Below, in pieces: positions 1,792-19,332 of a stretch of DNA of 64,000 nucleotides. This stretch comes from Neolewinella xylanilytica. GTDB taxonomy: Bacteria; Bacteroidota; Bacteroidia; Chitinophagales; Saprospiraceae. Each line of letters begins with the position of its first letter. Position 1 is the first letter of the stretch. The stretch is from the NCBI RefSeq assembly GCF_002934605.1, contig NZ_PTJC01000006.1, positions 992,001 through 1,056,000 of the forward strand, read 5' to 3'. The notes beneath the pieces were generated by a model. That model worked only from the letters and a program-made list of their open reading frames with translations. It was not told the origin of the DNA and did not search any database. The position numbers and the translations under genes are program-made.

Positions 1792-2737
1792 CCAGTACGG
1801 TTTCTACCAGGTAGTGGTTGCGATCGGGGTTGGAGCGGGCGACCAGTTCGGCCAGGAAGCCGGTCACGAAGAGGATCGTTCCCATCACCATCGTGGTCAG
1901 GCTGATGTAGAACCAGGGGTTGTTGGTGACCAGCACCATGGGCATGTTATTCGCCAGGGCGTACACCTTGGTGGTGCCGATCACGATGGAAGCGACGAAG
2001 CCGATCAGGAACATGATGGTGCCGATGGTGCCGAAGAGGTGCATGGGTCGCTTGCCGAATTTTCCGACGAACATCAGGGTCAGCAGGTCGAGAAAGCCCG
2101 TGATCAGCCGGCTCAGGCCGAATTTCGACGTTCCGTACTTGCGTGGCCGGTGCTCGACTACCCTTTCACCGATTTTGCGAAAGCCGGCCCACTTCGCCAG
2201 TAAGGGCATGTGGCGGTGCATGTCGCCGTATACCTCGATCGATTTGATCACGTTGCGGCGGTAACTCTTCAGGCCACAGTTGAAGTCGTGGAGACGAATG
2301 CCGCTGACCTTGCGCGTGACGAAATTGAAGAATTTGGACGGCAGCGTTTTACCGAGGGGGTCTTTGCGGTCTTTCTTCCAACCCGAAACGACGTCGTAGC
2401 CCTCCTCCATTACCATCTGGTACAGGAAGGGAATTTCATCCGGACTGTCCTGTAGGTCGGCGTCCATGGTGATGATGACATCGCCGGCGGCGTACTGGAA
2501 CCCTACGTTGAGGGCGGGGCTTTTACCGTAATTCCGTTGGAATTTGATTCCCTTCAGGCAGTCATTCCGAGCGGCCAGTGCCGTGATGACCTGCCAGCTA
2601 TCGTCATTGCTTCCGTCGTCTACCAGCCAGACCTCGTAGCTGTAGCCGTTGGCTTGCATGACGCGGTCGATCCAGGCCGTCAGTTCGGGCAAGGATTCTT
2701 GCTCGTTGAATAAGGGAACGACTACGCTGATGTCCAT
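1784..2737 (-). CDS. GT2-family polyprenyl-phosphate glycosyltransferase
   Basis: A 317-residue membrane-bound glycosyltransferase of the DPM1/ArnC type, which moves a sugar from a nucleotide donor to a polyprenyl phosphate on the inner face of the cytoplasmic membrane. The GT-A domain opens with ISVVVPLFNEQESLPEL, has LVDDGSNDDS and the metal-binding DADLQDSPDE (DxD-type). Two hydrophobic segments at about residues 232-255 and 272-295 form the C-terminal membrane anchor. It overlaps the upstream dihydroorotase-like gene by 16 bases and tadA by 8. The sugar and acceptor cannot be read from sequence. Confidence 0.88.
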   Translation of the reverse strand: MDISVVVPLFNEQESLPELTAWIDRVMQANGYSYEVWLVDDGSNDDSWQVITALAARNDCLKGIKFQRNYGKSPALNVGFQYAAGDVIITMDADLQDSPDEIPFLYQMVMEEGYDVVSGWKKDRKDPLGKTLPSKFFNFVTRKVSGIRLHDFNCGLKSYRRNVIKSIEVYGDMHRHMPLLAKWAGFRKIGERVVEHRPRKYGTSKFGLSRLITGFLDLLTLMFVGKFGKRPMHLFGTIGTIMFLIGFVASIVIGTTKVYALANNMPMVLVTNNPWFYISLTTMVMGTILFVTGFLAELVARSNPDRNHYLVETVLDA

Positions 2738-3990
2738 AGGCGGTCGTGGTTGATGGTCGCCAGGATACGGCCCGGCAGTTCGCGGCCGATCAGGGGGCTA
2801 TTGCGGGTCTTCCCCTGTAGATCGCCCGCGGTAAAGCGTGCCGAACCGGCCGTCGTGAAGAGGGTAAGGGAGGCCGGCATGCCGACGGCTATCCGTACCG
2901 GCTCAAGGCCCAGGAGGCGGCGTGGTCCGGATGTGAGCGCGGCTACCACCCGATCTATGTCATCCTCTCCGTCAACCCAGCTCAGTTGCTGGCGGAAGGC
3001 CGTTTCGAGGCCCAGGGCACCAAAGGCGGCGTAGCTGAATTCCAGGTCTTTCTCCTCTCCGTGCCGGGCACGATGATGGCTGACGATGGCGGTGATGGTA
3101 CCGTCCAGAACGCCCCGGCGCAGCGCTTCCCGGTCGCTGGCACTTCGTAGCGGCGGCATCACCTTGAAGTTCGGATTGAAGTCGGAAAGTTCCTCGTCGG
3201 TGAAGCTGAGGTGGTGGGCGCCTACCGTGCAGCCGATCAGCCTTTCCGGGGATAGGCCATAAGCCCGGATCAGTTCGAGGGATTCCGCGCTGGAAACAAG
3301 GTGCAGCAGTAAGCGACCTTCAGTATAGGTGAGGATGCTGAGCGCCCGGCGTAGCGGAATCGTTTCACATATGGTCGGTATGCCCTGTAATCCGAGCTGA
3401 ACGCTGTGCTTTCCCTCGTGCATTTGTCCGTCTTCCGCCAAGTCGCTGTCGTAGGGGCTGTCCATTACGAGTCCGCCGAAGCCCTTTGCGTATTCCAGGC
3501 CCCGTTTTAGCAGACTGCCGGCTAGCGATCGTCCGGGGCCGTCCGTAAAGGCTATGGCGCCGGCCTCGTTCAGCTCCATCATTTCCGTCAGGTCGCTGCC
3601 CTTAGTCTCGTGACTGAGTGCGGCGAGCGGCAGCAGGTCAACCTCCCCGGTCTGGCTGCGTGCGTTGAGGTACGCCATGTCGGCAACCGTTTGCCGCACC
3701 GGGGAGGTGTTCGGCAGTACGGCCACGGCAACGTATCCACCGGCTCGCGCCGAAGCGATGAGGCTTTGAATATCCTCCCTTTCTTCGTGGCCCGGATCGC
3801 CGAGATAGGCTCCGATATCCACGAAGCCGGGGGAGAGGCGGGCGTGTTCCCGGGCGAACACCGTTTCGTCAGCTGCGGCTTCCAGGGATTTCCCGACCTC
3901 GGTGATTTGCCCGGCAACGACGCGTACGTCAACGGTTTTGCGGTGAAACGGACTGTCGGGGTCGGTGATATGAACGGAGCGAAGGAGCAT
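2722..3990 (-). CDS. Dihydroorotase-like protein, probably non-catalytic
   Basis: A 422-residue member of the cyclic amidohydrolase family, closest in layout to dihydroorotase (pyrimidine synthesis). The fold is recognisable: PGFVD motif, LHLVSS, and a C-terminal GLETAF stretch. Key metal ligands are gone: the HxH after PGFVD is Gly60 and Tyr62 (DIGAY), the following Arg-Glu-Pro-Gly is GDPG, the usual FSDDG is FTDGPG, the HAED-type motif is absent, and (S/T)DHAPH is SHHRARH. Only the His of LHLVSS remains. It resembles the inactive PyrC' proteins known as structural partners of aspartate transcarbamoylase, but its neighbours are a BatA-domain gene and a glycosyltransferase. A -7-like element TACCTTTG sits 7 bases before the ATG. 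Confidence 0.85.
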   Translation of the reverse strand: MLLRSVHITDPDSPFHRKTVDVRVVAGQITEVGKSLEAAADETVFAREHARLSPGFVDIGAYLGDPGHEEREDIQSLIASARAGGYVAVAVLPNTSPVRQTVADMAYLNARSQTGEVDLLPLAALSHETKGSDLTEMMELNEAGAIAFTDGPGRSLAGSLLKRGLEYAKGFGGLVMDSPYDSDLAEDGQMHEGKHSVQLGLQGIPTICETIPLRRALSILTYTEGRLLLHLVSSAESLELIRAYGLSPERLIGCTVGAHHLSFTDEELSDFNPNFKVMPPLRSASDREALRRGVLDGTITAIVSHHRARHGEEKDLEFSYAAFGALGLETAFRQQLSWVDGEDDIDRVVAALTSGPRRLLGLEPVRIAVGMPASLTLFTTAGSARFTAGDLQGKTRNSPLIGRELPGRILATINHDRLWTSA

Positions 3991-4062
3991 GGCGGGGCAA
4001 AGGTATCATTTCGCCGTAAATGGACGTACCGTATACCTGGCAGTACCGGCTGATCGACTAAA

Positions 4063-6081
4063 TCAGGTTTTCCAGAAGCGTAACACCAGGGCTTCCGCCA
4101 AGAGGAAAATGAGCGTAGCCCAGATGAAGTAGCGCCAGAGCGACCTTCCTTCGGTGCGTTCCCGTATGTCGTCCACCAGCGCTGCCTGGGAGTTGGCGTC
4201 CAGTACCGTTACCCCGGGAATGGACGCTAATGCCGCATCGGTCGAATAGGTGAGGTCCGATTCGGTGCGGTCGTAGTTGAAGGCGAAGGATTCCACCGTT
4301 TCCTCGTCGATGACCAGCTCGTAAACGCCCGCTTCCGGCACCTGACCGCCCAGGCTGAGGGCCACGCGTCCGCCGATGGTCCGTTGTTGAGGAATGAATT
4401 CCCCGCCGGGGCCACGAAGTTTGTAGACGATTTCCGCGGAGGATTGGCGGCGGCTGGTTTCGATCACCTCGTCCTGGCCGATTACGTAGGCCAGGGGGCG
4501 ACGTCGTCCGCTGCTGATGCCCATCTTATAAAGCATCGGAATGAAGACTTCCGCGTTCAGGCCCAGGTTGTTGGTCTCGGCGTCGAGGGGAGCCGAATTG
4601 AGGTAAAGATTACCGTCTCCAATGGTGTATTTCGCCAGCGCGGTGCTGCCATCCCGGTACGTAAGCAGTGCTTCTTGTTGCCGGCTGCCGTAGCGGGTCA
4701 GGGGGTAGTTGGCCTGGGTGGCAGGTAAATTCAGGGCGTTTTGCCGACCCTGATATACGCCCTCGAAAATAAATTCCTCGTCGTTTAGTCCGCTGACTTC
4801 CCGCGACTGCTCCTGGTAGGGTTCCAGCTCGTCGGCCGGGAGGGCGGAAAGGAAAGCATTGTAGCTGGTCAGGTCGACCCCGGTGGGTGGGAAGAGCAGG
4901 ACGTTGCCGCCGTTGCGGAGGTACTGCCGGAGTTGTTCACCCAGGCCACTGGCCATGGAGGTCAGATCGGTCAGGATGAGCAGTTCGTAATTCCCCAGGC
5001 TACCGTAGTCAATGTTCTGCGCGTTGACCGTGGTTGCCTCGAAGACGCCCAGTTGCAGGGCTGCGCTGAGGTTGCGGTCGGGGAGGTTGTCGCCGTCGAT
5101 GTGCAGGACCCGAACCCGGTCGATGGTTCGGAATGCCAGTTCGTAGACGTCGTCGAATTCCACCGGATAATCGGTGATGCGTAGCTGAGCCGATCCCGAA
5201 CCCGGCTGGCTGATATTTAGGTAGACACTATCGACGATACTGCCCCCGGCTGGAATCCCGAGGGTCCCTTCCGGCTTGTTCTGGCCCAGGTAGCTGCTGC
5301 TAAGCCGAACGTTGTCGAGGTTTTCATCACCGTAGTTGCGCACGCGCACCAGCAGCAAGTTGTTTTGATTGAGTTGCGGAACGGGTGCATCGAACCAGGC
5401 GGAGTCGATGGCCACGTTCCGCTCCTGTACGGCCTTGAGTGGCACCAGGTTAATCGCGAGCGTGGTGTCGGAGCCTTCCAGGTCTGTAATGTTGCGTTGA
5501 AAATCCGAAATGAGGTAGCTGATGCGGTTTTCGACGTTGCCGGTATTCAGCACGGCCGTCTGTCGGTCGACCACGCGGCTCAATCGACGGCTTTCCGGAC
5601 TCGCTCGTATCTCGTCGATCGCATCCAGTGCTTCCTGTTGGCCGACCAGTCGCTGGTTGCGGCCGCTAAAGGCATTGGTCAGCACCTGAAAGCGGTCTTC
5701 CGGTCCGTAGGCGGCCACGATGTCGCGGGCGCGGTCGCGGGCAACCTGCAGCAGTGGTGCCCGGTCGCTTTCCGCTGCCATGCTAAAGCTGTTATCCACG
5801 TATACGCTGATGGCCTTGCGGCCCTGCAAGATGCCCTCATTCACGGGGATAAATGGCTGGGCGAAGGCAATCACCAGTGCGATCACCGCCAGGCAACGCA
5901 GCAGCAGGACCAGCAGATTCCGGAGCCGACTGCGCATACTCGTCTCTTCTTTCACCTCCTGTAGAAAACGGACGTTGCTGAAGTACACCTTGCGAAATCT
6001 CCGGAAATAAAAGAGGTGAATGATCACCGGCACGGCAACCAGGGTCAACGCCCAGAGAAAGGAAGGGTAAAGGAAGGACAT
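4063..6081 (-). CDS. BatA-domain membrane protein with VWA-like region
   Basis: A 672-residue protein starting with the BatA N-terminal membrane domain (MSFLYPSFLWALTLVAVPVI, then IHLFYFRRFRKVYFSNVRFL and a second membrane span near residues 57-78). After it comes a von Willebrand factor A-like region with VYVDNSFS, matching the DxSxS metal site. A long beta-rich periplasmic-type portion follows and a last membrane span (YFIWATLIFLLAEALVL) lies just before the C-terminus. Proteins of this type are common in Bacteroidota and often sit beside a dihydroorotase-like gene; their function is not well known. The 8-bp repeat array begins 3 bases upstream of its ATG, occupying the 5' leader. Confidence 0.88.
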   Translation of the reverse strand: MSFLYPSFLWALTLVAVPVIIHLFYFRRFRKVYFSNVRFLQEVKEETSMRSRLRNLLVLLLRCLAVIALVIAFAQPFIPVNEGILQGRKAISVYVDNSFSMAAESDRAPLLQVARDRARDIVAAYGPEDRFQVLTNAFSGRNQRLVGQQEALDAIDEIRASPESRRLSRVVDRQTAVLNTGNVENRISYLISDFQRNITDLEGSDTTLAINLVPLKAVQERNVAIDSAWFDAPVPQLNQNNLLLVRVRNYGDENLDNVRLSSSYLGQNKPEGTLGIPAGGSIVDSVYLNISQPGSGSAQLRITDYPVEFDDVYELAFRTIDRVRVLHIDGDNLPDRNLSAALQLGVFEATTVNAQNIDYGSLGNYELLILTDLTSMASGLGEQLRQYLRNGGNVLLFPPTGVDLTSYNAFLSALPADELEPYQEQSREVSGLNDEEFIFEGVYQGRQNALNLPATQANYPLTRYGSRQQEALLTYRDGSTALAKYTIGDGNLYLNSAPLDAETNNLGLNAEVFIPMLYKMGISSGRRRPLAYVIGQDEVIETSRRQSSAEIVYKLRGPGGEFIPQQRTIGGRVALSLGGQVPEAGVYELVIDEETVESFAFNYDRTESDLTYSTDAALASIPGVTVLDANSQAALVDDIRERTEGRSLWRYFIWATLIFLLAEALVLRFWKT

Positions 6082-6083
6082 AG

Positions 6084-6245
6084 TAGTCTTTTAGTTCTTT
6101 AGTCTTTTAGTTAGGGGGGAGTCGTTTAATTCGTTAGTCTTTTAGTCTTTTAGTCGGGTAGTTCGTTAGTCTTTTAGTCTGTTAGTCTTTTAGTTCGTTA
6201 GTCTGTTAGTCGGGTAGTTCGTTAGTCTTTTAGTCGGTAGTCTTT
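6084..6245 (+). repeat. Octamer tandem array, consensus TAGTYNNN
   Basis: About 20 head-to-tail units of 8 bases. Most begin TAGTC or TAGTT; the last three bases vary among TTT, TGT, GGG and, after TAGTT, CGT or CTT. Units start at 6084, 6092, 6100 and 6108, then after a short phase shift two degenerate units lead into a regular run from 6135 to 6230, with one 7-base unit near the end. The array starts 3 bases upstream of the BatA-domain ATG. Confidence 0.9.
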
Positions 6246-10648: not shown

Positions 10649-13600
10649 ATGACAGTGAGGATCATCGGTATCGGTGCCTCCGCTGGTGGCTTGCAAGCCC
10701 TTGAGGAGTTTTTTTCTGAAGTTCCGGTAGGGTTGGGTGTGGCTTTCATAGTGGTGCAGCATCTGAGTATGGATCATGCCAGCTCGATGAGCTCGATCCT
10801 CCAGCGTACGACGAGTCTGCGGGTCGTACCGTTAGATAGTTTGGTTGTTCCCGAACCGGATACGGTTTACGTGAAGATGCCCGGGGTTGACGTAGAAGTG
10901 GACAAAATGACTATCCGGACTGTCGCCCGTAACGCGACAAAGAATGCTCTTTACCTCCCCATTGACGATTTCTTTTTCAGTCTGGCCAAATCACGGGGTG
11001 AAGATGCAATCGCTATCGTCCTTTCCGGGATGGGGGCCGATGGAAGCCGGGGCCTTAAAGAGGTGAAATCTCGTGGCGGACTGGTTATGGTGCAGCATCC
11101 GGGATCGGCTCAGTTTGACGGTATGCCCCGTGCGGCCCTCCGCCAGCATCTTGCCGATATCGTGCTGCCGCCCGCTGAACTGGCCTCCCGCCTCGCCACC
11201 ATGCTCCGTCATAGCACGGCACTAGATCCGGAGAATGACGTACTGCACAATCTGACCCAATCCGACCTGGTTCGCAAGTTATTAGACCGGATCTATCAAA
11301 CCGCCCGCTTAGATTTCAACCGGTATCGGCCCGCTACGATTATGCGGCGAATCGAGAAACGCATGTTGATCCGACAGCACGCCGATCTAGCACAGTACGT
11401 CCAGCAAACCCTTGAGGACGAGGAGGAACTGCAAACCCTGCGGCAAAGCTTTCTCATCGGGGTAACCCGATTCTTTCGGGACCAGGATGCCTTCGACGTA
11501 CTGAAGCAGGAGGTCATTCCCTCTCTTTTCGATCAGGTGGGGGAGCGGGAAGTACGCATTTGGGTGCCCGCCTGCTCCACCGGCGAGGAAGCCTACAGCA
11601 TCGCCATCCTCATTCAGGATTACCTGGATTCAAACGGTTTGGAGCGTACGTTTAAGATCTTTGGCTCCGACGTGGACCGTAAATCGATCATTACCGCGGC
11701 TGCCGGGGTGTACGACGAATCCATTGCCGCAGACGTTCCGGCACCCTGGTTACAAAAGTATTTCATTCGGGAACCCCCTGGCTTCAGGGTTCGTCCGGAC
11801 CTGAAGGAAAACATTCTTTTTGCCGTTCAGAACCTGCTGGATGATCCGCCCTTCATTCGCATTGACTTTTTATCCTGTCGGAATTTTCTAATCTACGTGA
11901 ACGGGGAAGGGCAGCAGCGCATTTTGGCAAATTTTCACTTCAGCCTTAACCCTTCAGGCTGTCTGATGCTTGGCCCCAGCGAAAGCCTCGGGGGCTTACA
12001 ATCCGCCTTTACCACCGTGGATCGTCGTTGGAAGATCTACCGCAAACGAATGGGCGGAAAGACACCGGCGAGAAGGGGCGGGCACATTATCGACCATTCA
12101 TCTTCTCTGACCGAAGGCGAAAATACCCCGGCAGTACCGCAGCTGAGCCAGCGGCTGGCGGACTCCTCGACCGGTGCCTTCAAAAGATCTAATCCATCCT
12201 CCTTGGCTTCCATGGACTTTTACGCTCGCTACCTCTCCGAGCGCTACGCACCGGCGACGCTTTTCGTAAACCGGCAGTACGATATTTTATACTTGAATGG
12301 CGACTTCGACGGCATGCTCCGGCTACCCCGGTTCAATGCCATGCTGTCGTTGCACACCATGGTGAGTCAGGAAGCGCAAAGCCTGCTCACCGCGGGCGTG
12401 GATCGGGTGTTGCGCACCGGAAACTCCGGGGTTTTCGAACGCATTAATCTAGCGGACACGGGCAATACCCCGAATTACGTGCGGGTACGCTTCAGCGTAA
12501 CGGAGTTCGCACAGGTAGACGAGCCGGTCGCCATGCTGGAATTTTTTCCCAGCGAAGAGCAGTTGAAATTCGGGGCGGAAATCGAAGGGGACGAGGTCTA
12601 TTCAGTCGATAGCAGATTAAGAGAACGGATTCGGCGGTTGGAGGCGGAGCTGCTGTCGAGTGAGCAAAGGGGGCAAAAGTTGTATAACGAACTGGAAGCG
12701 ACCAATGAAGAGTTACAATCCAGCAACCGGGAGCTGTTGGCCTCCAACGAGGAAATGCAGAGTACCAACGAGGAACTCCAATCGGTCAACGAAGAGCTGT
12801 ATACGGTTAACAACGAATTCCAGCGGAAAAACGAGGAACTGAACAACATCAACAACGATGTCCACAATCTTCTGAAGAGTACCCAAATCAGTACGATCTT
12901 CGTTGACGATCAGTTACGGATCCGTCGGTTTACTCCCGGAGTGGGCCAGCAGTTCGATCTGCATACCTCGGACCTGGGGCGTCCCATAACCTCCTTTTCC
13001 AATCCCTTCGAAGAACTGGACTTCGAAGCGCTTTGCCGCAAGGTGTTAACCTCGACCGTTCGCCACGATCAGGAGATTCAAGACAGGAAAGGGAATTATT
13101 TCCTGTTACGAATGCTGCCGTACCTCACCGATCAGGAGCATGTACAGGGCATCGTCATTACTTTCGTGGACATCAACGATTTGGTGTTCACCCGTCATCG
13201 GCTCACCGACATGGCGAACAAGTACGAGGCTATTTTCGAGAATACGGAGGAGACCATCGCCGTACTCTGGGAGAACAGCCGGATCGAGGAAGTTAATCGT
13301 CCACTTGCCGGCCGCCAGAAAGCCGAGTTAGTCGGAACGTACTTCACCGACCTGATCGTGAGCGATCAGGATAAAGTACGGTTCAACGAAGGCCTGCGGG
13401 CTAGTTTCGACCGGGGAGAAGTCTCCAATCAGGAATTGAGCCTGAAAAGTTCCGCGGGATCGACCATCTATACCAAGCTAGAGATCATTCCGATCGCTCC
13501 CACGGTGGAGAACACCGCTGAAAAGATGGGCCGGGTAAGTCAAGTTATGGTGATCATTCATGATTTCACCGAAATTGAAGAAGAGCGTCAGCAGTCGACC

Positions 13601-13936
13601 GCGATTATCTCCAAGTACGTCGAAGCCCTCTCCCAGCTGCAGCAGGATGCGGGTCTGGTAGACATGCAGGATCGATTAATCAACGTCAACCACATGCGCG
13701 GGCACATTCATGAGCCTGACCACTACCTGAACAGAATGATATCTGACTTTATCACCCCATCGGGTATGGAAAAATACCGGTTAGCCGTCGACCGGATTCG
13801 GGGCGGGAGTGAAGTGGAAAAAGTCACGTTCTCGCTGCAGGAATTACTGGATGACAATCAACCGCGTACCGTGCTTTACCGTCCGGTATTCATTAACGGT
13901 GTACTCACCTTCATCAATTTTGAGACGGTAGATTAG
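10649..13936 (+). CDS. CheB-CheR-PAS fusion signalling protein
   Basis: A 1095-residue multidomain protein. Residues about 1-185 are a CheB methylesterase domain without a receiver: GIGASAGG with Ser11, VVQHLSMDH with the His, and SGMGADGSRG with the Asp. Residues about 200-465 are a CheR methyltransferase (SAM site VPACSTGEEAYS, LSCRNFLIYV). A long coiled coil rich in NEELQS repeats (about 655-735) leads to two or three PAS-type sensor domains. No histidine kinase domain follows. Classical CheB/CheR adjust methylation of chemoreceptors, but no chemotaxis gene is near, so the target is unknown. It ends 173 bases from a convergent sigma-54 activator. Confidence 0.88.
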   Translation: MTVRIIGIGASAGGLQALEEFFSEVPVGLGVAFIVVQHLSMDHASSMSSILQRTTSLRVVPLDSLVVPEPDTVYVKMPGVDVEVDKMTIRTVARNATKNALYLPIDDFFFSLAKSRGEDAIAIVLSGMGADGSRGLKEVKSRGGLVMVQHPGSAQFDGMPRAALRQHLADIVLPPAELASRLATMLRHSTALDPENDVLHNLTQSDLVRKLLDRIYQTARLDFNRYRPATIMRRIEKRMLIRQHADLAQYVQQTLEDEEELQTLRQSFLIGVTRFFRDQDAFDVLKQEVIPSLFDQVGEREVRIWVPACSTGEEAYSIAILIQDYLDSNGLERTFKIFGSDVDRKSIITAAAGVYDESIAADVPAPWLQKYFIREPPGFRVRPDLKENILFAVQNLLDDPPFIRIDFLSCRNFLIYVNGEGQQRILANFHFSLNPSGCLMLGPSESLGGLQSAFTTVDRRWKIYRKRMGGKTPARRGGHIIDHSSSLTEGENTPAVPQLSQRLADSSTGAFKRSNPSSLASMDFYARYLSERYAPATLFVNRQYDILYLNGDFDGMLRLPRFNAMLSLHTMVSQEAQSLLTAGVDRVLRTGNSGVFERINLADTGNTPNYVRVRFSVTEFAQVDEPVAMLEFFPSEEQLKFGAEIEGDEVYSVDSRLRERIRRLEAELLSSEQRGQKLYNELEATNEELQSSNRELLASNEEMQSTNEELQSVNEELYTVNNEFQRKNEELNNINNDVHNLLKSTQISTIFVDDQLRIRRFTPGVGQQFDLHTSDLGRPITSFSNPFEELDFEALCRKVLTSTVRHDQEIQDRKGNYFLLRMLPYLTDQEHVQGIVITFVDINDLVFTRHRLTDMANKYEAIFENTEETIAVLWENSRIEEVNRPLAGRQKAELVGTYFTDLIVSDQDKVRFNEGLRASFDRGEVSNQELSLKSSAGSTIYTKLEIIPIAPTVENTAEKMGRVSQVMVIIHDFTEIEEERQQSTAIISKYVEALSQLQQDAGLVDMQDRLINVNHMRGHIHEPDHYLNRMISDFITPSGMEKYRLAVDRIRGGSEVEKVTFSLQELLDDNQPRTVLYRPVFINGVLTFINFETVD

Positions 13937-14109: not shown

Positions 14110-15915
14110 TTATTTCGGACTTTGACCGCTAGTACGTCCGGATGGGCGATTGATGCCTAGTTTACGCATTTTGCTAAAGAGCGTCTGTGGATTCAGCCCC
14201 AGTAATTTTGCCGCTCCGTCTTTTCCGCTCACCTTGCCTTCCGTAAGGTGGAGCACCGAAAGAATGTGGCGACGTTGCATCTCTTCAAAGGTTATCACGT
14301 CCGCTTCGGTCAGCACCGTATTCGCGCCCAGCGGCTGCATTGCTGCTTTGGGGGCACGATCCAGGGAGATGTCCAGGTATTCACCGTCGCTCACAATCAG
14401 GGCGCGTTGAATGATATTTTCCAGTTCGCGTACGTTTCCGTCGAAGGGGTAAGCCTGTAGGCGATCGATGTCTTCCTGCCTGACCCGGAAGGACCGCCCA
14501 TTTTTCGGTCCGTGCTTCTTGATAAAGTGTGCTACCAAAGCAGGTATATCTTCGGGCCTTTCGCGTAGGGCCGGACTGTGGATCGGAAATACGTTCAGCC
14601 GGAAGTACAAATCCGAACGAAAGGATCCCTCGCTTACCCGTTCGCGCAGGTTGCGGTTCGTCGCGGCAATGATCCGTACGTCCGTTTGAATGCTCTCTTT
14701 CGCACCCAGCGGAGTGAATTCTCCGTCTTGAAGGACCCGGAGCAGCCGCGTCTGCAATAACATCGGCATCTCCCCGATCTCGTCGAGGAATAATGTACCC
14801 TCGTCGGCTAGTTCGAAGCGACCCAAATGGTCGCCACGCGCACCCGTGAAGGCACCTTTGCGGTAGCCGAACAGCTCGCTTTCGATCAGATCGGCGGGAA
14901 GGGCACCGCAGTTCAGGATGACCAGGGGGCGGCGTGCGCGCAGGCTAAGGGCGTGAATTGCCCGCGCGATCAATTCCTTTCCCGTGCCGGTTTCCCCGGT
15001 GATCAACACGGTGCTGTCGGTGGCCGCCACCTGATTGATCTGCTGGAGCACTTTATCGTACAGCGGACTCTGGGAAACGATCTTGTAGGATATCTGACCG
15101 CTCAGTTTGTCATTCATTAATGCACTCCGCCTTTCTAACTGGGTGGAGAGTTTCTCGAGCTCGATTTCCAGCGTTTGACGCTGTCGCTCCTCCGCCCGTC
15201 GGCCGGTCAGGTCAAAGGCGGTGATCATGTACTGATCTTTGTACGCGATTTTACTTAGCGGCTTGATCGTGACTTCGACGGGAATGAGGGTGTTGTTATT
15301 CCGTTGGAACGAGGTCTGGTAGGTTACGGACCCCCGCGTCATCGCCGATCGTAGATGGCTGGCAATATCCTGCGCGTTCTGTTCGGCGTCGATTTCGGTC
15401 AGGGCGGGGAGCGGTTGGGTACGATCGAGCCCCAATTCGATGAGCAGGGGCAGGTTGATGGAAAGGACGTTTCCCTGTTCGTCGATGCGCATCGCAAAGC
15501 AATTTAGCTTATCGATGACTACCTCCGCATCCTCCTCTGGGATATACTTTGCCGCCTCCCCATCGATTCGCGTACGGCTGATGATGCCGCAAATAGCGGG
15601 GCTGTTCGCGTAGGTGATGCGCGTGGCAAAAAGAATGAGTGGCTTTCGGGTGTTGGAAAAGCGCCCGACCGGGAGCACCAATCTTCGGGTAGCCCCGCCC
15701 TGCTTGAAACTTAACAGGAAACCTCGAAACTCCGCTGGATTGTGAAAAATGCCGAGGCCGAATACGGTGCGATCCATCTCAACCAGGTCGGGCTGGCCCG
15801 CAACGGACAACATCGAGCGGTTTGCACAGGCAATGTTCCCGTTTTGCAAAGCGATGAAGCCTGGTAAAGGGACCGTTTCCAGAATCCTACCTAAGTCGGA
15901 AGTGGGTGAGTTCAT
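14110..15915 (-). CDS. Sigma-54-dependent transcriptional activator (PAS-AAA+-Fis)
   Basis: A 601-residue enhancer-binding protein that remodels sigma-54 RNA polymerase to start transcription. The N-terminal 260 residues are PAS-like sensor regions. The AAA+ core has Walker A GETGTGKE, the sigma-54 contact loop GAFTGA, Walker B TLFLDEIGEMP, and an arginine-rich second half. The C-terminus carries a Fis-type helix-turn-helix (GAAKLLGLNPQTLFSKMRKL). It has no receiver domain, so it probably senses a ligand or partner through PAS. I use the ATG at 15915 rather than a TTG at 15936. Target promoters are unknown; neighbours are the CheB/CheR-PAS protein and the beta-oxidation pair. Confidence 0.9.
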   Translation of the reverse strand: MNSPTSDLGRILETVPLPGFIALQNGNIACANRSMLSVAGQPDLVEMDRTVFGLGIFHNPAEFRGFLLSFKQGGATRRLVLPVGRFSNTRKPLILFATRITYANSPAICGIISRTRIDGEAAKYIPEEDAEVVIDKLNCFAMRIDEQGNVLSINLPLLIELGLDRTQPLPALTEIDAEQNAQDIASHLRSAMTRGSVTYQTSFQRNNNTLIPVEVTIKPLSKIAYKDQYMITAFDLTGRRAEERQRQTLEIELEKLSTQLERRSALMNDKLSGQISYKIVSQSPLYDKVLQQINQVAATDSTVLITGETGTGKELIARAIHALSLRARRPLVILNCGALPADLIESELFGYRKGAFTGARGDHLGRFELADEGTLFLDEIGEMPMLLQTRLLRVLQDGEFTPLGAKESIQTDVRIIAATNRNLRERVSEGSFRSDLYFRLNVFPIHSPALRERPEDIPALVAHFIKKHGPKNGRSFRVRQEDIDRLQAYPFDGNVRELENIIQRALIVSDGEYLDISLDRAPKAAMQPLGANTVLTEADVITFEEMQRRHILSVLHLTEGKVSGKDGAAKLLGLNPQTLFSKMRKLGINRPSGRTSGQSPK

Positions 15916-15997
15916 TAATCCGGTGTGAGCTCCCAAATTTACTAAATCCCGTCAATCTTCACGCAGCTACCTCACAAATTTGGATATTTAATAAGTA

Positions 15998-18124
15998 CTA
16001 GGGAGTTAGGCGATTCAGGTCAATCTCCCTGATAAAACGAGGGACGGTAAAGCGCTGGCCGTAACGCTCCTTTAATTCCTCGCAGCGCTGCAGAAAATTC
16101 TCGTGTCCGTAGCTGTAGATGTACCGCATAACCCCCCCGGTGTATCCCGGAAATCCCCAACCGTACACACTGGCGAGATTAGCGGCTTCGATGTACTCGA
16201 TCACCCCTTCCTGAAGGCACCAGCCCGCCTCGATAACCTGGGTAAAGAGGAAGCGGTGTTTCATGCGAAGCCGGTCGTAATCATCCTTGGTAACGGGGAA
16301 GTGCTTTTCCAAACCCGACCATAGGCGGCTGTTCCCGTTCGCTTCGTATTCGTAAAACCCGGCGCGTTTACTCTTTCCACTCCGTTCCAGTTCTTCCTTG
16401 ACCTTGATGAGAGCCGGAACGGCAGGGTGCTGTTTATACCGTTTACCGTAATGGTCGGCGGCTTGCTGTTCGTACCGTAGTACGAATTTGAGCCCTAGGT
16501 CATCCGCCATGGCCAACGGGCCGCTTTTCATGCCCGCCTGTCGGCCCATGTTCTCGATTAATGCGGCCGGATAGCCTTCGTTGAGCATGGTGACGCCCTC
16601 CAGGATGTAGGTATTGAGTACCCGTGCCGCAAAAAACCCCCAACTGTCCTTGACCACGATGGGGAGTTTGCGGATCGCAATGGCGAAGTCGAAAGCACGG
16701 GCCACGGTTTCGTCGCTGGTCTGTTCTCCCTTTACCACCTCAACCACCGCAGTTTTTTCCGCCGGTAAGAAAAAGTGAAGCCCTACGTAGTTTTCGGGGC
16801 GCAGACTTCCCCTCCCTAATTCCGTAATGGGGATCGACAGCGTATTCGTGCCAAATATGGCATACTCATCCAGGTGCTCTTCCGCCTCCCGCGTCACCTT
16901 GGTCTTGACCGATTTATTTTCGAAGACGGCTTCCACCACGATGTCACAATCCACGAAAAGGTCGCTCTTGGCGGTAGTGGTAATTCGGTTCAGCAGCTTT
17001 TCCCGATCCTCCGGCTGGAAGGTGCCGCGCTCGATGTACTCGTCGATCTTGTCGGCGATGTAGTCTTTTCCCCGGTCGGCGATGGGTTGGCTCACGTCCT
17101 TCAGGATTACCTCAAAGCCGTTGCGCAGACACAAAAAAGCAATCCCGGATCCCATCATGCCCGCTCCGATTACCCCCATGCGGCGGGCGCGGAACTTTCC
17201 GTACCCTTTGGGTCTGCCTACCCCCCCGCGTACCGCCTGTTTGTCGAACCAGTAGGTGGAGATCATGTTTTTCGTGACCGGGTCGGTGGCCACGCGGGCG
17301 TAGTAGCGGCTGTCGAGGCGATAGGCAGTCGTAAAGTCCAATTTGCTGCCTTCCGCGAGCAAATCGATAATGGCCAGTTTGGCGGGGTAGAGGTCGTTCG
17401 TCTTTGCCGAAAGCCGGGCGGTAAGCAGGCGAATGCGGTGGCCCAGGTTAGGATCCGCGGCGGTGCCGCCCGGGATCTCCCCGTCCGGATCGTCCCAAGT
17501 GCGACGGACGTCATGGTGGGCCAGAAGCCACTTCTTTGCCTTGCGGAGCATGTCGGTCCGATCCTCGGCAAGTTCGTCCACTAAGCCTACTTTTAACGCT
17601 TCCTGCGGACTGTACCGCCGGCCCTCCAGCAGTAACGGATAGGCTCTTTCAATGCCCAACAGCCACATAAGCCGGATCACCGCTCCGCCACTAGGAATGA
17701 GGCCGATCTTAACTTCCGGGTGACCCAGCCGCATTTTAGAGTCGGCTACGGCAATGCGGTAGTGGCAGGCCAGGGTAAGTTCGAAGCCCGTACCGAGAGC
17801 GTCGCCGTTGATGGCCGCCGCCACGGGAACGCCGGGCACTTCGAGGTCACGCAAAAACTGTTTGAGCTGTTGCGATGCCTCGAATGCTTTGGCCGGATCA
17901 TTCAGCTGGTAGAGGTAATCCAGGTCGCCGCTTTCGAGGAAGTCCTGCTTCGCGCTGGTAATAATGACACCGTTCAGCTTGCCGGCAAGCTTTTCCTGTT
18001 TGAGGTGCTCGATCACGGGGGCGAATGCCGCTACGATTTCGTGATTCAGCAGATTCCCGGACCGGCCGGACATGTCCAGAATCAGCGTAGCGATGTTGTC
18101 AGTATCCTTGCGGTAATAAATCAT
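15998..18124 (-). CDS. fadJ: Enoyl-CoA hydratase / 3-hydroxyacyl-CoA dehydrogenase fusion
   Basis: A 708-residue multifunctional alpha subunit of fatty acid beta-oxidation. The N-terminal crotonase domain (about 1-190) keeps both catalytic Glu residues (ALGTGFELTLA and HPEVKIGLIP). The middle and C-terminal part is a 3-hydroxyacyl-CoA dehydrogenase with NAD-binding GVIGAGMMGSGIA and the catalytic His-Glu pair in GLHFFLPAEKTAVVEVV. It overlaps the upstream thiolase-like gene by 4 bases (ATGA). The alpha subunit looks fully active while its thiolase partner does not. The fadJ/fadB choice is by layout only. Confidence 0.88.
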   Translation of the reverse strand: MIYYRKDTDNIATLILDMSGRSGNLLNHEIVAAFAPVIEHLKQEKLAGKLNGVIITSAKQDFLESGDLDYLYQLNDPAKAFEASQQLKQFLRDLEVPGVPVAAAINGDALGTGFELTLACHYRIAVADSKMRLGHPEVKIGLIPSGGAVIRLMWLLGIERAYPLLLEGRRYSPQEALKVGLVDELAEDRTDMLRKAKKWLLAHHDVRRTWDDPDGEIPGGTAADPNLGHRIRLLTARLSAKTNDLYPAKLAIIDLLAEGSKLDFTTAYRLDSRYYARVATDPVTKNMISTYWFDKQAVRGGVGRPKGYGKFRARRMGVIGAGMMGSGIAFLCLRNGFEVILKDVSQPIADRGKDYIADKIDEYIERGTFQPEDREKLLNRITTTAKSDLFVDCDIVVEAVFENKSVKTKVTREAEEHLDEYAIFGTNTLSIPITELGRGSLRPENYVGLHFFLPAEKTAVVEVVKGEQTSDETVARAFDFAIAIRKLPIVVKDSWGFFAARVLNTYILEGVTMLNEGYPAALIENMGRQAGMKSGPLAMADDLGLKFVLRYEQQAADHYGKRYKQHPAVPALIKVKEELERSGKSKRAGFYEYEANGNSRLWSGLEKHFPVTKDDYDRLRMKHRFLFTQVIEAGWCLQEGVIEYIEAANLASVYGWGFPGYTGGVMRYIYSYGHENFLQRCEELKERYGQRFTVPRFIREIDLNRLTP

Positions 18125-19332
18125 AGTCGTTCGATAATGGTGGAAACGGCCAGCCCGGCACCGGCGTCGATGGTCAGACTACCGATGTTCAGGTCCCGGC
18201 GTTCGAGTTCGTCCAGAATCTGGCAAAGCATCATACCTCCTACGGCGCCCAGGGGTTCGCCCAGGGCAATGCTCCCGCCGAGAACATTGATCTTATCCTC
18301 GTCAATGTCGAGCCGCTGTTGAAAGCGAATGGCCGGGGCGGCGAAAGATTCGTTGAATTCCCAAAGATCGATGTCGTCCCGGGTTAGCCCCGCTTGCTTC
18401 AGGGCGAGGTTAAACGCGTTAACGCCTCCGGTGAGCAAGGTGGCGTCAACGGCGGACATCGCCACCGCACGGATGCGGGCGCGGGCCTTAAAGCCGAGGC
18501 GTTCTCCCGAAGCACGGTTGCCTAATAGGCAAAGCGCGCACCCGTCCGCGGGGGGGCTGGTGTTCCCTTTGGTGTGTCGGTGGTCTACGTTATCTACTAG
18601 GGGAAAGCGATGAAGCGCCATCTCATCGAAGCCGGCCAGCCCCATCTCCGAAAAGCGAGCACCGAAGGTGGCCAGGCTTTCCATGTCGAGGCCGGCATCC
18701 GGTATCGTATCGATGGACAGAATCGGCAGTCCGTTCTGGTCGGTGATCGGCTCGAGGCTGGCCCGAAAATACCCCGCTTCCCGGGCGGCTACTGCCTTTG
18801 CGTGGCTTCGAAGCGCGTATTGGTCCAGGTCTTCCCGTTGGAGCCCGTGGGTGCTGGCTACCAAATCCGCGGCCACTCCCTGGGGGATGTAATGACTGTT
18901 GATCACCGTAGCCGGGTCGTTCATCATGGGGCCACTGTTCAGGTACGTTGGAACCCGCGACATCACCTCCAGCCCGCCGGCGATGATCGTATCCCCGTAA
19001 CCCGCGGTGATGCGGGCGGCAGCTAAATTGATGGCCTCCAGTCCACTCGTATTAAACCGGTTGATCTGCAGCCCGCCGCGCGCTTGTCCCCATCCGGCGT
19101 ACAGCAGCGCCGCTCTGGCGATGTTGTAGCCCTGGTCTCCCGCCGGCGTGTTACAACCGATGACTAAATCGTCGATCTCCGCGGGTAGATCGTCCCGACC
19201 GCTACGGCGTTGAAAGGCCCGCAGGCACTGTGCCAGCAGCTCGATCGGTTTAACTTCGTACAGGTCGGCGGGGAAGGCGGCTCGCCCGCGCGGACTGCGC
19301 AGGGCGTCGTAGATGAAGGCTTCGGTGGGCAA
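18121..19332 (-). CDS. Thiolase-fold protein lacking catalytic residues
   Basis: A 403-residue thiolase-family protein, full length and collinear with FadA/FadI-type 3-ketoacyl-CoA thiolases. The nucleophilic Cys in the usual NR(F/L)C(G/S)SG motif is Asn94 (NRFNTSGLEA). The His of the usual GHPLG is Glu359 (IALGEPLGAVGG). The second catalytic Cys near the end is Asp389 (LTIDAGAGLAV). The NEAFA region is kept as NESFAAP. I checked all three on the DNA. Since the thiolytic reaction needs both cysteines, the protein is probably inactive as a thiolase, or does a different reaction. It is the first gene of a two-gene operon with the intact FadJ-like subunit. Confidence 0.85.
   Translation of the reverse strand: MPTEAFIYDALRSPRGRAAFPADLYEVKPIELLAQCLRAFQRRSGRDDLPAEIDDLVIGCNTPAGDQGYNIARAALLYAGWGQARGGLQINRFNTSGLEAINLAAARITAGYGDTIIAGGLEVMSRVPTYLNSGPMMNDPATVINSHYIPQGVAADLVASTHGLQREDLDQYALRSHAKAVAAREAGYFRASLEPITDQNGLPILSIDTIPDAGLDMESLATFGARFSEMGLAGFDEMALHRFPLVDNVDHRHTKGNTSPPADGCALCLLGNRASGERLGFKARARIRAVAMSAVDATLLTGGVNAFNLALKQAGLTRDDIDLWEFNESFAAPAIRFQQRLDIDEDKINVLGGSIALGEPLGAVGGMMLCQILDELERRDLNIGSLTIDAGAGLAVSTIIERL

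What the first reader, a model, noticed from the sequence alone, without database searches (positions are those of the whole stretch)
18121..19332. Full-length thiolase that has lost both catalytic cysteines and the catalytic histidine, paired with an intact FadJ
Seen on the DNA: Asn94 replaces the nucleophilic Cys (NRFNTSG), Glu359 replaces the His of GHPLG, and Asp389 replaces the second Cys. Random decay would not keep a 403-residue reading frame, the NESFAAP motif and a 4-base overlap with fadJ. Known thiolases need these residues (established). The inference is that the protein is a scaffold or regulatory subunit of the hydratase/dehydrogenase, or catalyses a different acyl-CoA reaction.
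Basis: partly seen in the sequence, partly recalled or inferred. Interest (0 to 1): 0.72.

Follow-up and report, generated by a model that had tools for sequence, protein, structure and literature searches.

The report
Dead thiolase kept as complex partner
In a genus of marine bacteria, one subunit of a fatty-acid-burning enzyme complex has lost the residues that did its chemistry yet is strictly conserved beside its still-intact partner, and similar losses seem to have happened separately in related genera, which suggests that the dead subunit is kept for building the complex.

Summary
The 403-codon gene at 18121-19332 (-) encodes a full-length thiolase-fold protein with Asn94, Glu359 and Asp389 in place of Cys-His-Cys. 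It is not an error: 21 of 21 genomes of the genus (Lewinella/Neolewinella, Saprospiraceae) read N-N-E-D at positions 94/327/359/389, and the codons vary synonymously while the residues stay. The nearest solved relative is the thiolase (beta) subunit of the M. tuberculosis trifunctional enzyme. The alpha partner keeps its hydratase and dehydrogenase residues.

New here: the sister genus keeps Cys-His-Cys, while other Saprospiraceae genera have lost the site in different ways (for example Q-E/D-S/A, D-R-A/G, R-F-A, E-A-P), mostly beside the same alpha gene. rpoB rejects a single loss for this genus and the Q genus (AU p = 0.0075); alpha alone does not (p = 0.37). In some other genera alpha has instead lost its dehydrogenase histidine.

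Best reading (0.70): a pseudoenzyme kept as the beta2 core of an alpha2beta2 complex, with thiolysis done by another thiolase found in all 21 genomes. Not excluded: new chemistry, because in this genus the former active-site loops are unusually conserved.

The parts
18121..19332 (-). beta subunit: thiolase-fold pseudoenzyme, 403 aa (TTG start)
   Evidence: AlphaFold2 pLDDT 88.9, pTM 0.90; Foldseek top hit MtTFE beta 4b3h_D, E 3.6e-49, TM 0.94
15998..18124 (-). alpha subunit: enoyl-CoA hydratase / 3-hydroxyacyl-CoA dehydrogenase, 708 aa, overlaps the beta gene by 4 bases
   Evidence: catalytic-site residues E115, E137, S430, H450, E462 present
19051..19053 (-). codon of Asn94 (nucleophilic Cys in canonical relatives)
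   Evidence: AAT/AAC in 21 of 21 genus genomes
18346..18354 (-). codons of Asn327-Glu328-Ser329 (NEAF motif; Ala to Ser)
   Evidence: Ser329 in 21 of 21 genus genomes, Ala in 56 of 56 canonical orthologues
18256..18258 (-). codon of Glu359 (His of GHP in canonical relatives)
   Evidence: GAA/GAG in 21 of 21
18166..18168 (-). codon of Asp389 (second catalytic Cys in canonical relatives)
   Evidence: GAC/GAT in 21 of 21

Best explanation
The protein is the beta subunit of a mycobacterial-type fatty-acid beta-oxidation trifunctional enzyme that has lost the thiolase reaction but is kept as the structural core (beta2) on which the hydratase/dehydrogenase alpha chains assemble. The complex then works as a two-step hydratase/dehydrogenase and hands 3-ketoacyl-CoA to a separate thiolase, most likely the intact one encoded beside a second, FadB-like protein in the same genome. 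Shown: loss of all three catalytic residues, strict conservation of the replaced residues and of the gene pair in the genus, an alpha with its active-site residues in place, other intact thiolases, and site losses in other genera. Inferred: that no thiolysis occurs, that the alpha2beta2 complex forms, and which thiolase finishes the cycle.
For: Loss fixed and selected: 21 of 21 genus genomes, codon turnover, median omega about 0.12 for beta and 0.09 for alpha (19 rows, 171 pairs, 157 usable). Nearest kin by sequence and fold is MtTFE beta, whose beta2 dimer is described as the core of the tetramer (PMC11301753, passages); a triple mutant that includes beta-C92A was crystallised (entry 7o1g title). 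Recurrence: among 117 genomes in 46 genera whose beta I read, the nucleophile is gone in every genome read of seven genera (g1 21, g63 7, g73 2, g93 2, g2 1, g23 1, g45 1); g57 (4 of 4) keeps Cys but has lost Asn, His and the second Cys. The state next door is canonical: sister genus g62 is CNHC in 4 of 4 and groups with g1 at 100/95 (alpha) and 100/98 (rpoB). One clade of g1 + g63 is rejected on rpoB, AU p = 0.0075 (three genomes of each). Alpha keeps E115, E137, S430, H450, E462 in 28 of 28 rows with an altered beta. In 150 family genomes, 76 of 76 with a beta match also have an alpha match (from; both counts include a second, canonical TFE). Positions 94 and 359 change together into varied pairs (N-E, Q-E, Q-D, D-R, E-A, R-F), which suits a packed dead pocket better than one new chemistry. 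A thiolase of the L002 type has a match in 21 of 21 genus genomes, one cut by a contig end; the 9 that I read are CNHC.
Against: In this genus beta is not relaxed: the median ratio of non-synonymous differences beta/alpha is 1.01, within the 0.83-1.75 of canonical clades, and the five former active-site loops are more conserved than the whole (39 of 51 sites invariant against 191 of 403, p = 6e-6). Changes of otherwise conserved columns are not significantly concentrated in those loops in g1 (20 of 26 kept against 72 of 83, p = 0.23). On the alpha protein alone a joint g1 + g63 clade is not rejected (p = 0.37). One alpha (G071) had no beta found, though its contig ends 96 bases upstream. In g93 and g57 the altered beta is not beside alpha. 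The complex was not modelled, and no activity data exist.
Confidence: 0.7

Rival explanations
1. The site was rebuilt for another acyl-CoA reaction: two carboxylates (Glu359, Asp389), Asn94 and the kept Asn327 form a new catalytic group, for example for hydrolysis, decarboxylation or retro-aldol cleavage of the product that alpha makes.
For: All of these residues are invariant over 21 genomes with codon turnover; the loops are unusually conserved; genus g63 arrived, separately by rpoB, at a carboxamide at 94, an acid at 359 and Ser329. Thiolase-fold aldolases with rebuilt sites exist (PMC12329534, passages).
Against: g63 does not keep Asp389 (Ser/Ala) and mixes Glu/Asp at 359; other genera carry Ala, Arg, Phe or Pro at these positions. 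The six window neighbours scanned and the sigma-54 activator give no clear hint of another pathway.
Confidence: 0.15
2. Beta still binds CoA or 3-ketoacyl-CoA without cleaving it, and acts as a product holder, channel wall or regulatory sensor of the alpha chains.
For: The loops are conserved and 96 of 113 columns that are conserved in 56 canonical orthologues are kept in g1; additional CoA sites and a channelling path are proposed for MtTFE (PMC11301753, passages).
Against: Ser258, Met299 and Asn351, each in 56 of 56 canonical orthologues, are replaced; g73, G023, G045 and g93 keep only 42-50% of the conserved loop columns.
Confidence: 0.11
3. An unrecognised thiolase: other residues have taken over and the protein still cleaves 3-ketoacyl-CoA.
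For: The gene is kept at normal constraint beside an intact alpha. Two cysteines, Cys36 and Cys370, are invariant in 21 of 21 genus genomes; Cys370 replaces a Gly that is conserved in canonical orthologues. I did not test whether either can reach the pocket.
Against: Nucleophile, base and second Cys are all gone from the motifs. MsTLP1, a thiolase-fold protein without these residues, showed no thiolase activity (PMC3406046, passages).
Confidence: 0.03
4. Sequencing or assembly error, or a decaying pseudogene.
For: None found in the genus; a few single-genome states elsewhere (G217 SNHC, G121 CNHP) could be errors.
Against: 21 genomes, open frames, omega about 0.12, codon turnover.
Confidence: 0.01

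Closest known systems
Beta subunit (FadA, Rv0859) of the M. tuberculosis trifunctional enzyme, MtTFE
   Same: Best match by sequence (E 3.9e-104) and fold (TM 0.94, 45% identity); encoded with an alpha that has hydratase and dehydrogenase domains.
   Different: All three catalytic residues are lost; score 445.9 is below the 514 cut-off of NCBIfam NF006090.
Beta of the sister genus g62 (G062, L093)
   Same: 55% identical, same gene order and 4-base overlap with alpha.
   Different: Keeps C-N-H-C (4 of 4 genomes).
Thiolase-like protein TLP1 of M. smegmatis (PMC3406046, passages)
   Same: Thiolase fold without the catalytic residues; no thiolase activity was measured for TLP1.
   Different: TLP1 is monomeric, has an extra C-terminal domain and 15% identity to Z. 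ramigera thiolase; the protein here is a plain 403-aa thiolase paired with alpha.
Steroid aldolases Sal and Ltp2 (PMC12329534, passages)
   Same: Thiolase-fold partner subunits with rebuilt active sites.
   Different: They use YDCY or YDHF motifs and a DUF35 partner; here the motif is NESF and the partner is a hydratase/dehydrogenase.
BbsCD, a dehydrogenase of anaerobic toluene degradation with inactive pseudoenzyme subunits (reference title seen in PMC10818641)
   Same: An inactive homologue kept as a subunit of a beta-oxidation-type enzyme.
   Different: Short-chain dehydrogenase, not a thiolase; active and inactive subunits form one heterotetramer.
Chain-length factor (KS-beta) and PqsB (recalled, not tested)
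   Same: Thiolase-fold subunits without the nucleophile that support a partner.
   Different: They pair with an active thiolase-fold subunit; here beta would pair with itself and with alpha.

Membership tests
Thiolase family | Thiolase_N and Thiolase_C domains, whole-length match | tested here: met
   Pfam 109.3 and 102 bits over cut-offs 26.4 and 27; TIGR01930 284.2 over 240.55
Thiolase family | Catalytic Cys / His / Cys | tested here: not met
   Asn94, Glu359, Asp389
Thiolase family | Thiolase activity | not testable with these tools
   needs an assay
MtTFE-type trifunctional enzyme | Beta closest to MtTFE beta by sequence and fold | tested here: met
MtTFE-type trifunctional enzyme | Alpha with hydratase and dehydrogenase domains beside beta | tested here: met
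   domains in the window alpha; adjacent in 21 of 21 genus genomes
MtTFE-type trifunctional enzyme | Hydratase Glu/Glu and dehydrogenase His/Glu in alpha | tested here: met
   E115, E137, H450, E462
MtTFE-type trifunctional enzyme | Third function: active thiolase site in beta | tested here: not met
   residues lost
MtTFE-type trifunctional enzyme | alpha2beta2 assembly | not testable with these tools
   no complex prediction was offered
Thiolase-like protein TLP1 | Extra C-terminal domain after the thiolase fold | tested here: not met
   403 aa, Thiolase_C match ends at residue 402
Sal/Ltp2 aldolases | YDCY or YDHF motif at the NEAF position | tested here: not met
   NESF

The most novel reading that the evidence does not exclude
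In Saprospiraceae the trifunctional enzyme is being taken apart site by site while the two-subunit body stays: several lineages lost the thiolase site and kept alpha, others kept the thiolase and lost the dehydrogenase or hydratase site of alpha. In this genus and, separately, in genus g63 the dead thiolase pocket became a carboxamide-carboxylate site (Asn/Gln94 with Glu/Asp359, Ser329) that does a new, non-thiolytic job on the acyl-CoA made by alpha.
Probability: 0.18. Interest if true: 0.82.

Novelty: new variant of a known kind. Interest (0 to 1): 0.62.

Why it matters
Trifunctional enzymes are textbook cases of linked active sites, and whether the thiolase subunit is needed mainly for chemistry or for assembly is hard to test. 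Here nature seems to have made the separation more than once, in cultured marine bacteria with intact sister lineages for comparison. If confirmed, annotating these genes as acetyl-CoA acyltransferases is wrong, and the pairs offer a direct test of scaffold function and of substrate channelling.

Tried and rejected
Considered and rejected: sequencing error or pseudogene (21 of 21 genomes, codon turnover); filing the pair as E. coli-type FadIJ (FadJ scores far below cut-off, and the best fold hits are MtTFE); a steroid aldolase (motif not met). The beta tree puts degenerate rows on long branches that meet, so I did not count losses on it and used the alpha and rpoB trees. The AU test on alpha did not reject one g1 + g63 clade (p = 0.37), nor one of g1 with the RSFA/EYAP/DDR rows (p = 0.39); a third AU test did not finish and was not repeated. 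Whether RSFA, EYAP, DDR and -QDS are one loss or several stays open: together at 87, split with weak support.

Limits of the counts. dN/dS was by a simple counting method (Nei-Gojobori) with median synonymous differences of 0.45-0.79 per site, so absolute values are rough; dS was usable in 1 of 6 g62 pairs and in no pair of g73 or g33, and g18 gave no ratio because of identical sequences. The 117-genome table leaves out loci of other thiolase types (L002-, L003-like and distant ones), the Chitinophagales MAG L057, and the second TFE of genomes that have one (G045, for instance, also has a canonical beta of that kind, L127). Where beta is not beside alpha (g57, g78, g93, g102 and others) I took the best match, so pairing there is inferred. 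Two beta fragments cut by contig ends (G241, G204) are among the 117 but lack the Cys region; the 30 'DEG' rows included them, and one search gives 28 without them. Of genus g63 an eighth genome (G063) showed only a weaker alpha match (E 9e-139) and no such beta. The loop-against-rest test was run on 14 groups without correction: besides those named in the report, g63 (p = 0.12), g73 (0.82), G023 (0.059), g57 (0.35) and G103 (0.73) were not significant. G183, G049, G137 and G268 gave no rpoB match and are absent from that tree. Literature searches for a degenerate thiolase in a trifunctional enzyme, or for thiolases in Lewinella or Saprospiraceae, gave nothing on point in the listings (open-licence PubMed Central only).
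Full report
WHAT IS THERE. The ORF at 18121-19332 (-) is 403 codons, starts with TTG and overlaps the 708-codon ORF 15998-18124 (-) by 4 bases. Pfam finds Thiolase_N and Thiolase_C well above cut-off, and in the partner both 3-hydroxyacyl-CoA dehydrogenase domains and an enoyl-CoA hydratase domain. The motifs INRFNTSG, NESFAA, GEPLG and DAGAG put Asn94, Glu359 and Asp389 at the nucleophilic Cys, the GHP His and the second Cys; Asn327 of the NEAF motif is kept and Ala329 is Ser.

WHAT FAMILY. Among solved structures the nearest by sequence is the beta subunit of the M. tuberculosis trifunctional enzyme (MtTFE; E 3.9e-104), and the AlphaFold2 model of the window protein (mean pLDDT 88.9, pTM 0.90, 26-row alignment) matches the same protein best (4b3h_D, E 3.6e-49, TM 0.94, 45% identity). 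The family model NF006090 is matched over its whole length but below its cut-off (445.9 against 514), and FadJ/FadB models are matched by the partner far below theirs. In a search of 395 genomes of the phylum, the strong matches (E about 1e-130 or better) outside the window's own family were in two other families (g162 of f14; g145, g149 and g159 of f10); all 7 of those loci read C-N-H-C.

FIXED IN THE GENUS. All 21 genomes of the window's genus have the gene, the other 20 at 66-94% identity, next to alpha, and all 21 read N-N-E-D. That the genus is Lewinella/Neolewinella is inferred from the 17 titled contigs at 75-94% identity, which are Lewinella and Neolewinella species or MAGs. At residues 94, 329, 359 and 389 the codons differ among genomes while the residues do not. 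Median pairwise omega is about 0.12 for beta and 0.09 for alpha, and the beta/alpha ratio of non-synonymous differences is 1.01 (19 rows, 171 pairs, 157 usable for omega). The gene is under purifying selection, not decaying.

ALPHA IS INTACT. Residues aligned with the two hydratase glutamates (E115, E137) and with the dehydrogenase Ser, His and Glu (S430, H450, E462) are present in the window and in 28 of 28 alpha rows whose beta has an altered site. That these positions are catalytic is recalled knowledge of the families. The dehydrogenase Asn position is Ala here, as in 29 of the 44 canonical rows that have a residue there.

RECURRENT LOSS. I searched alpha in 398 genomes of the family (171 with E <= 1e-100) and read beta for 117 genomes in 46 genera. 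71 of the 117 read C-N-H-C and two more are fragments. The nucleophile is absent in all genomes read of g1 (21), g63 (7, Q-N-E/D-S/A), g73 (2, D-D-R-A/G), g93 (2, with a deletion there), g2 (1, D-Q-H-G), g23 (1, R-S-F-A) and g45 (1, E-Y-A-P), and in one of two of g20. Genus g57 (4 of 4) reads C-V-Y-S, and single genomes elsewhere have lost only the second Cys (G103, G178, G136, G121). Outside that count, a Chitinophagales MAG reads C-G-Y-S (L057). In g93 and g57 the beta is not beside alpha, so pairing there is inferred. Even the far-gone g73 protein is predicted as a full thiolase fold (pLDDT 84.5, pTM 0.89) with MtTFE beta as best match (4b3h_C, TM 0.89).

HOW MANY LOSSES. On the careful alpha tree (68 rows) the genus is sister to g62, which is C-N-H-C (support 100/95), and g63 lies elsewhere. 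On rpoB (26 genomes) g1 + g62 has 100/98, one clade of g1 + g63 is rejected (AU p = 0.0075), and the fewest changes between canonical and altered is 6. On alpha alone the same one-clade test does not reject (p = 0.37), so the weight rests on rpoB and on the g62 sister placement. L057 is sister to canonical rows (99; 100/99). Separate loss in g1, g63 and L057 is thus supported; for the others the number is open.

MECHANISM. [quoted passage not shown] A dead beta can therefore plausibly still hold alpha. In 150 family genomes 76 of 76 with a beta match (E <= 1e-80) have an alpha match (E <= 1e-100); three have alpha only, one of which (G073) has a degenerate beta that the threshold missed (both sets include a second, canonical TFE). 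The cycle can be completed by another thiolase: the genome has one beside a 799-aa FadB-like protein and one acetyl-CoA acetyltransferase, both C-N-H-C, and the first type has a match in all 21 genus genomes, one of them cut by a contig end. Residues 94 and 359 change together into N-E, Q-E, Q-D, D-R, E-A and R-F (also C-Y, S-H and D-H), as expected for a packed pair in a disused pocket.

WHAT SPEAKS AGAINST A MERE SCAFFOLD. In this genus the five former active-site loops are not free: 39 of 51 sites are invariant against 191 of 403 overall (p = 6e-6), though these loops may also be structural. g1 and g63 share Ser329, a carboxamide at 94 and an acid at 359. The change in g1 is not significantly concentrated in the loops (20 of 26 conserved columns kept against 72 of 83, p = 0.23), whereas it is in L057, G001, g93 and G045 (uncorrected). 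Cys36 and Cys370 are invariant in the genus, and Cys370 replaces a conserved Gly. A retained ligand-binding or new catalytic role therefore stays open.

THE OTHER HALF. In some relatives the loss is on the alpha side: H450 is Arg in four of five g33 rows and in both g46 rows, which also lack the first hydratase Glu, and in G071; the g33 and g46 betas read keep the nucleophile. No row has both an altered beta and a lost alpha His, but the numbers are too small for a test.

VERDICT. A conserved pseudoenzyme subunit in a known kind of complex, evolved more than once: a new variant of a known kind. I found no paper describing it in the searches made.

Noticed in passing
L179, L181, L186, L188 (genus g33), L176, L185 (g46), L189 (G071): Alpha subunits of the same family in which the dehydrogenase His450 is Arg; in the two g46 rows the first hydratase Glu is Gly as well. 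Active sites of this complex seem to be lost on either side.
   Followed up: partly
L128 (G057), 2100-6227 (-): In genus g57 the C-V-Y-S beta lies apart from alpha, next to a beta-eliminating lyase and a menaquinone-biosynthesis gene.
   Followed up: partly
window 14110-15936 (-): Sigma-54 activator (with a sub-threshold PAS match) directly downstream of alpha; an ORF of similar size follows alpha in L033, but in L046 a beta-lactamase-family protein takes its place.
   Followed up: partly
window 10649-13936 (+): 1095-aa fusion of CheB methylesterase, CheR methyltransferase and PAS domains.
   Followed up: no
L065 (own genome C2:829000-837500): Third thiolase (acetyl-CoA acetyltransferase type, C-N-H-C) about 1.1 kb from an acyl-CoA thioesterase on the other strand.
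   Followed up: no
L058 (Sphingobium jiangsuense), L131 (G014): Distant thiolases with C-N-H-S and C-A-H-S, that is, without the second catalytic Cys.
   Followed up: no
window 18121-19332 (-), residue 370: A Cys370 that is invariant in the genus where canonical orthologues have a conserved Gly; its place relative to the pocket was not examined.
   Followed up: no
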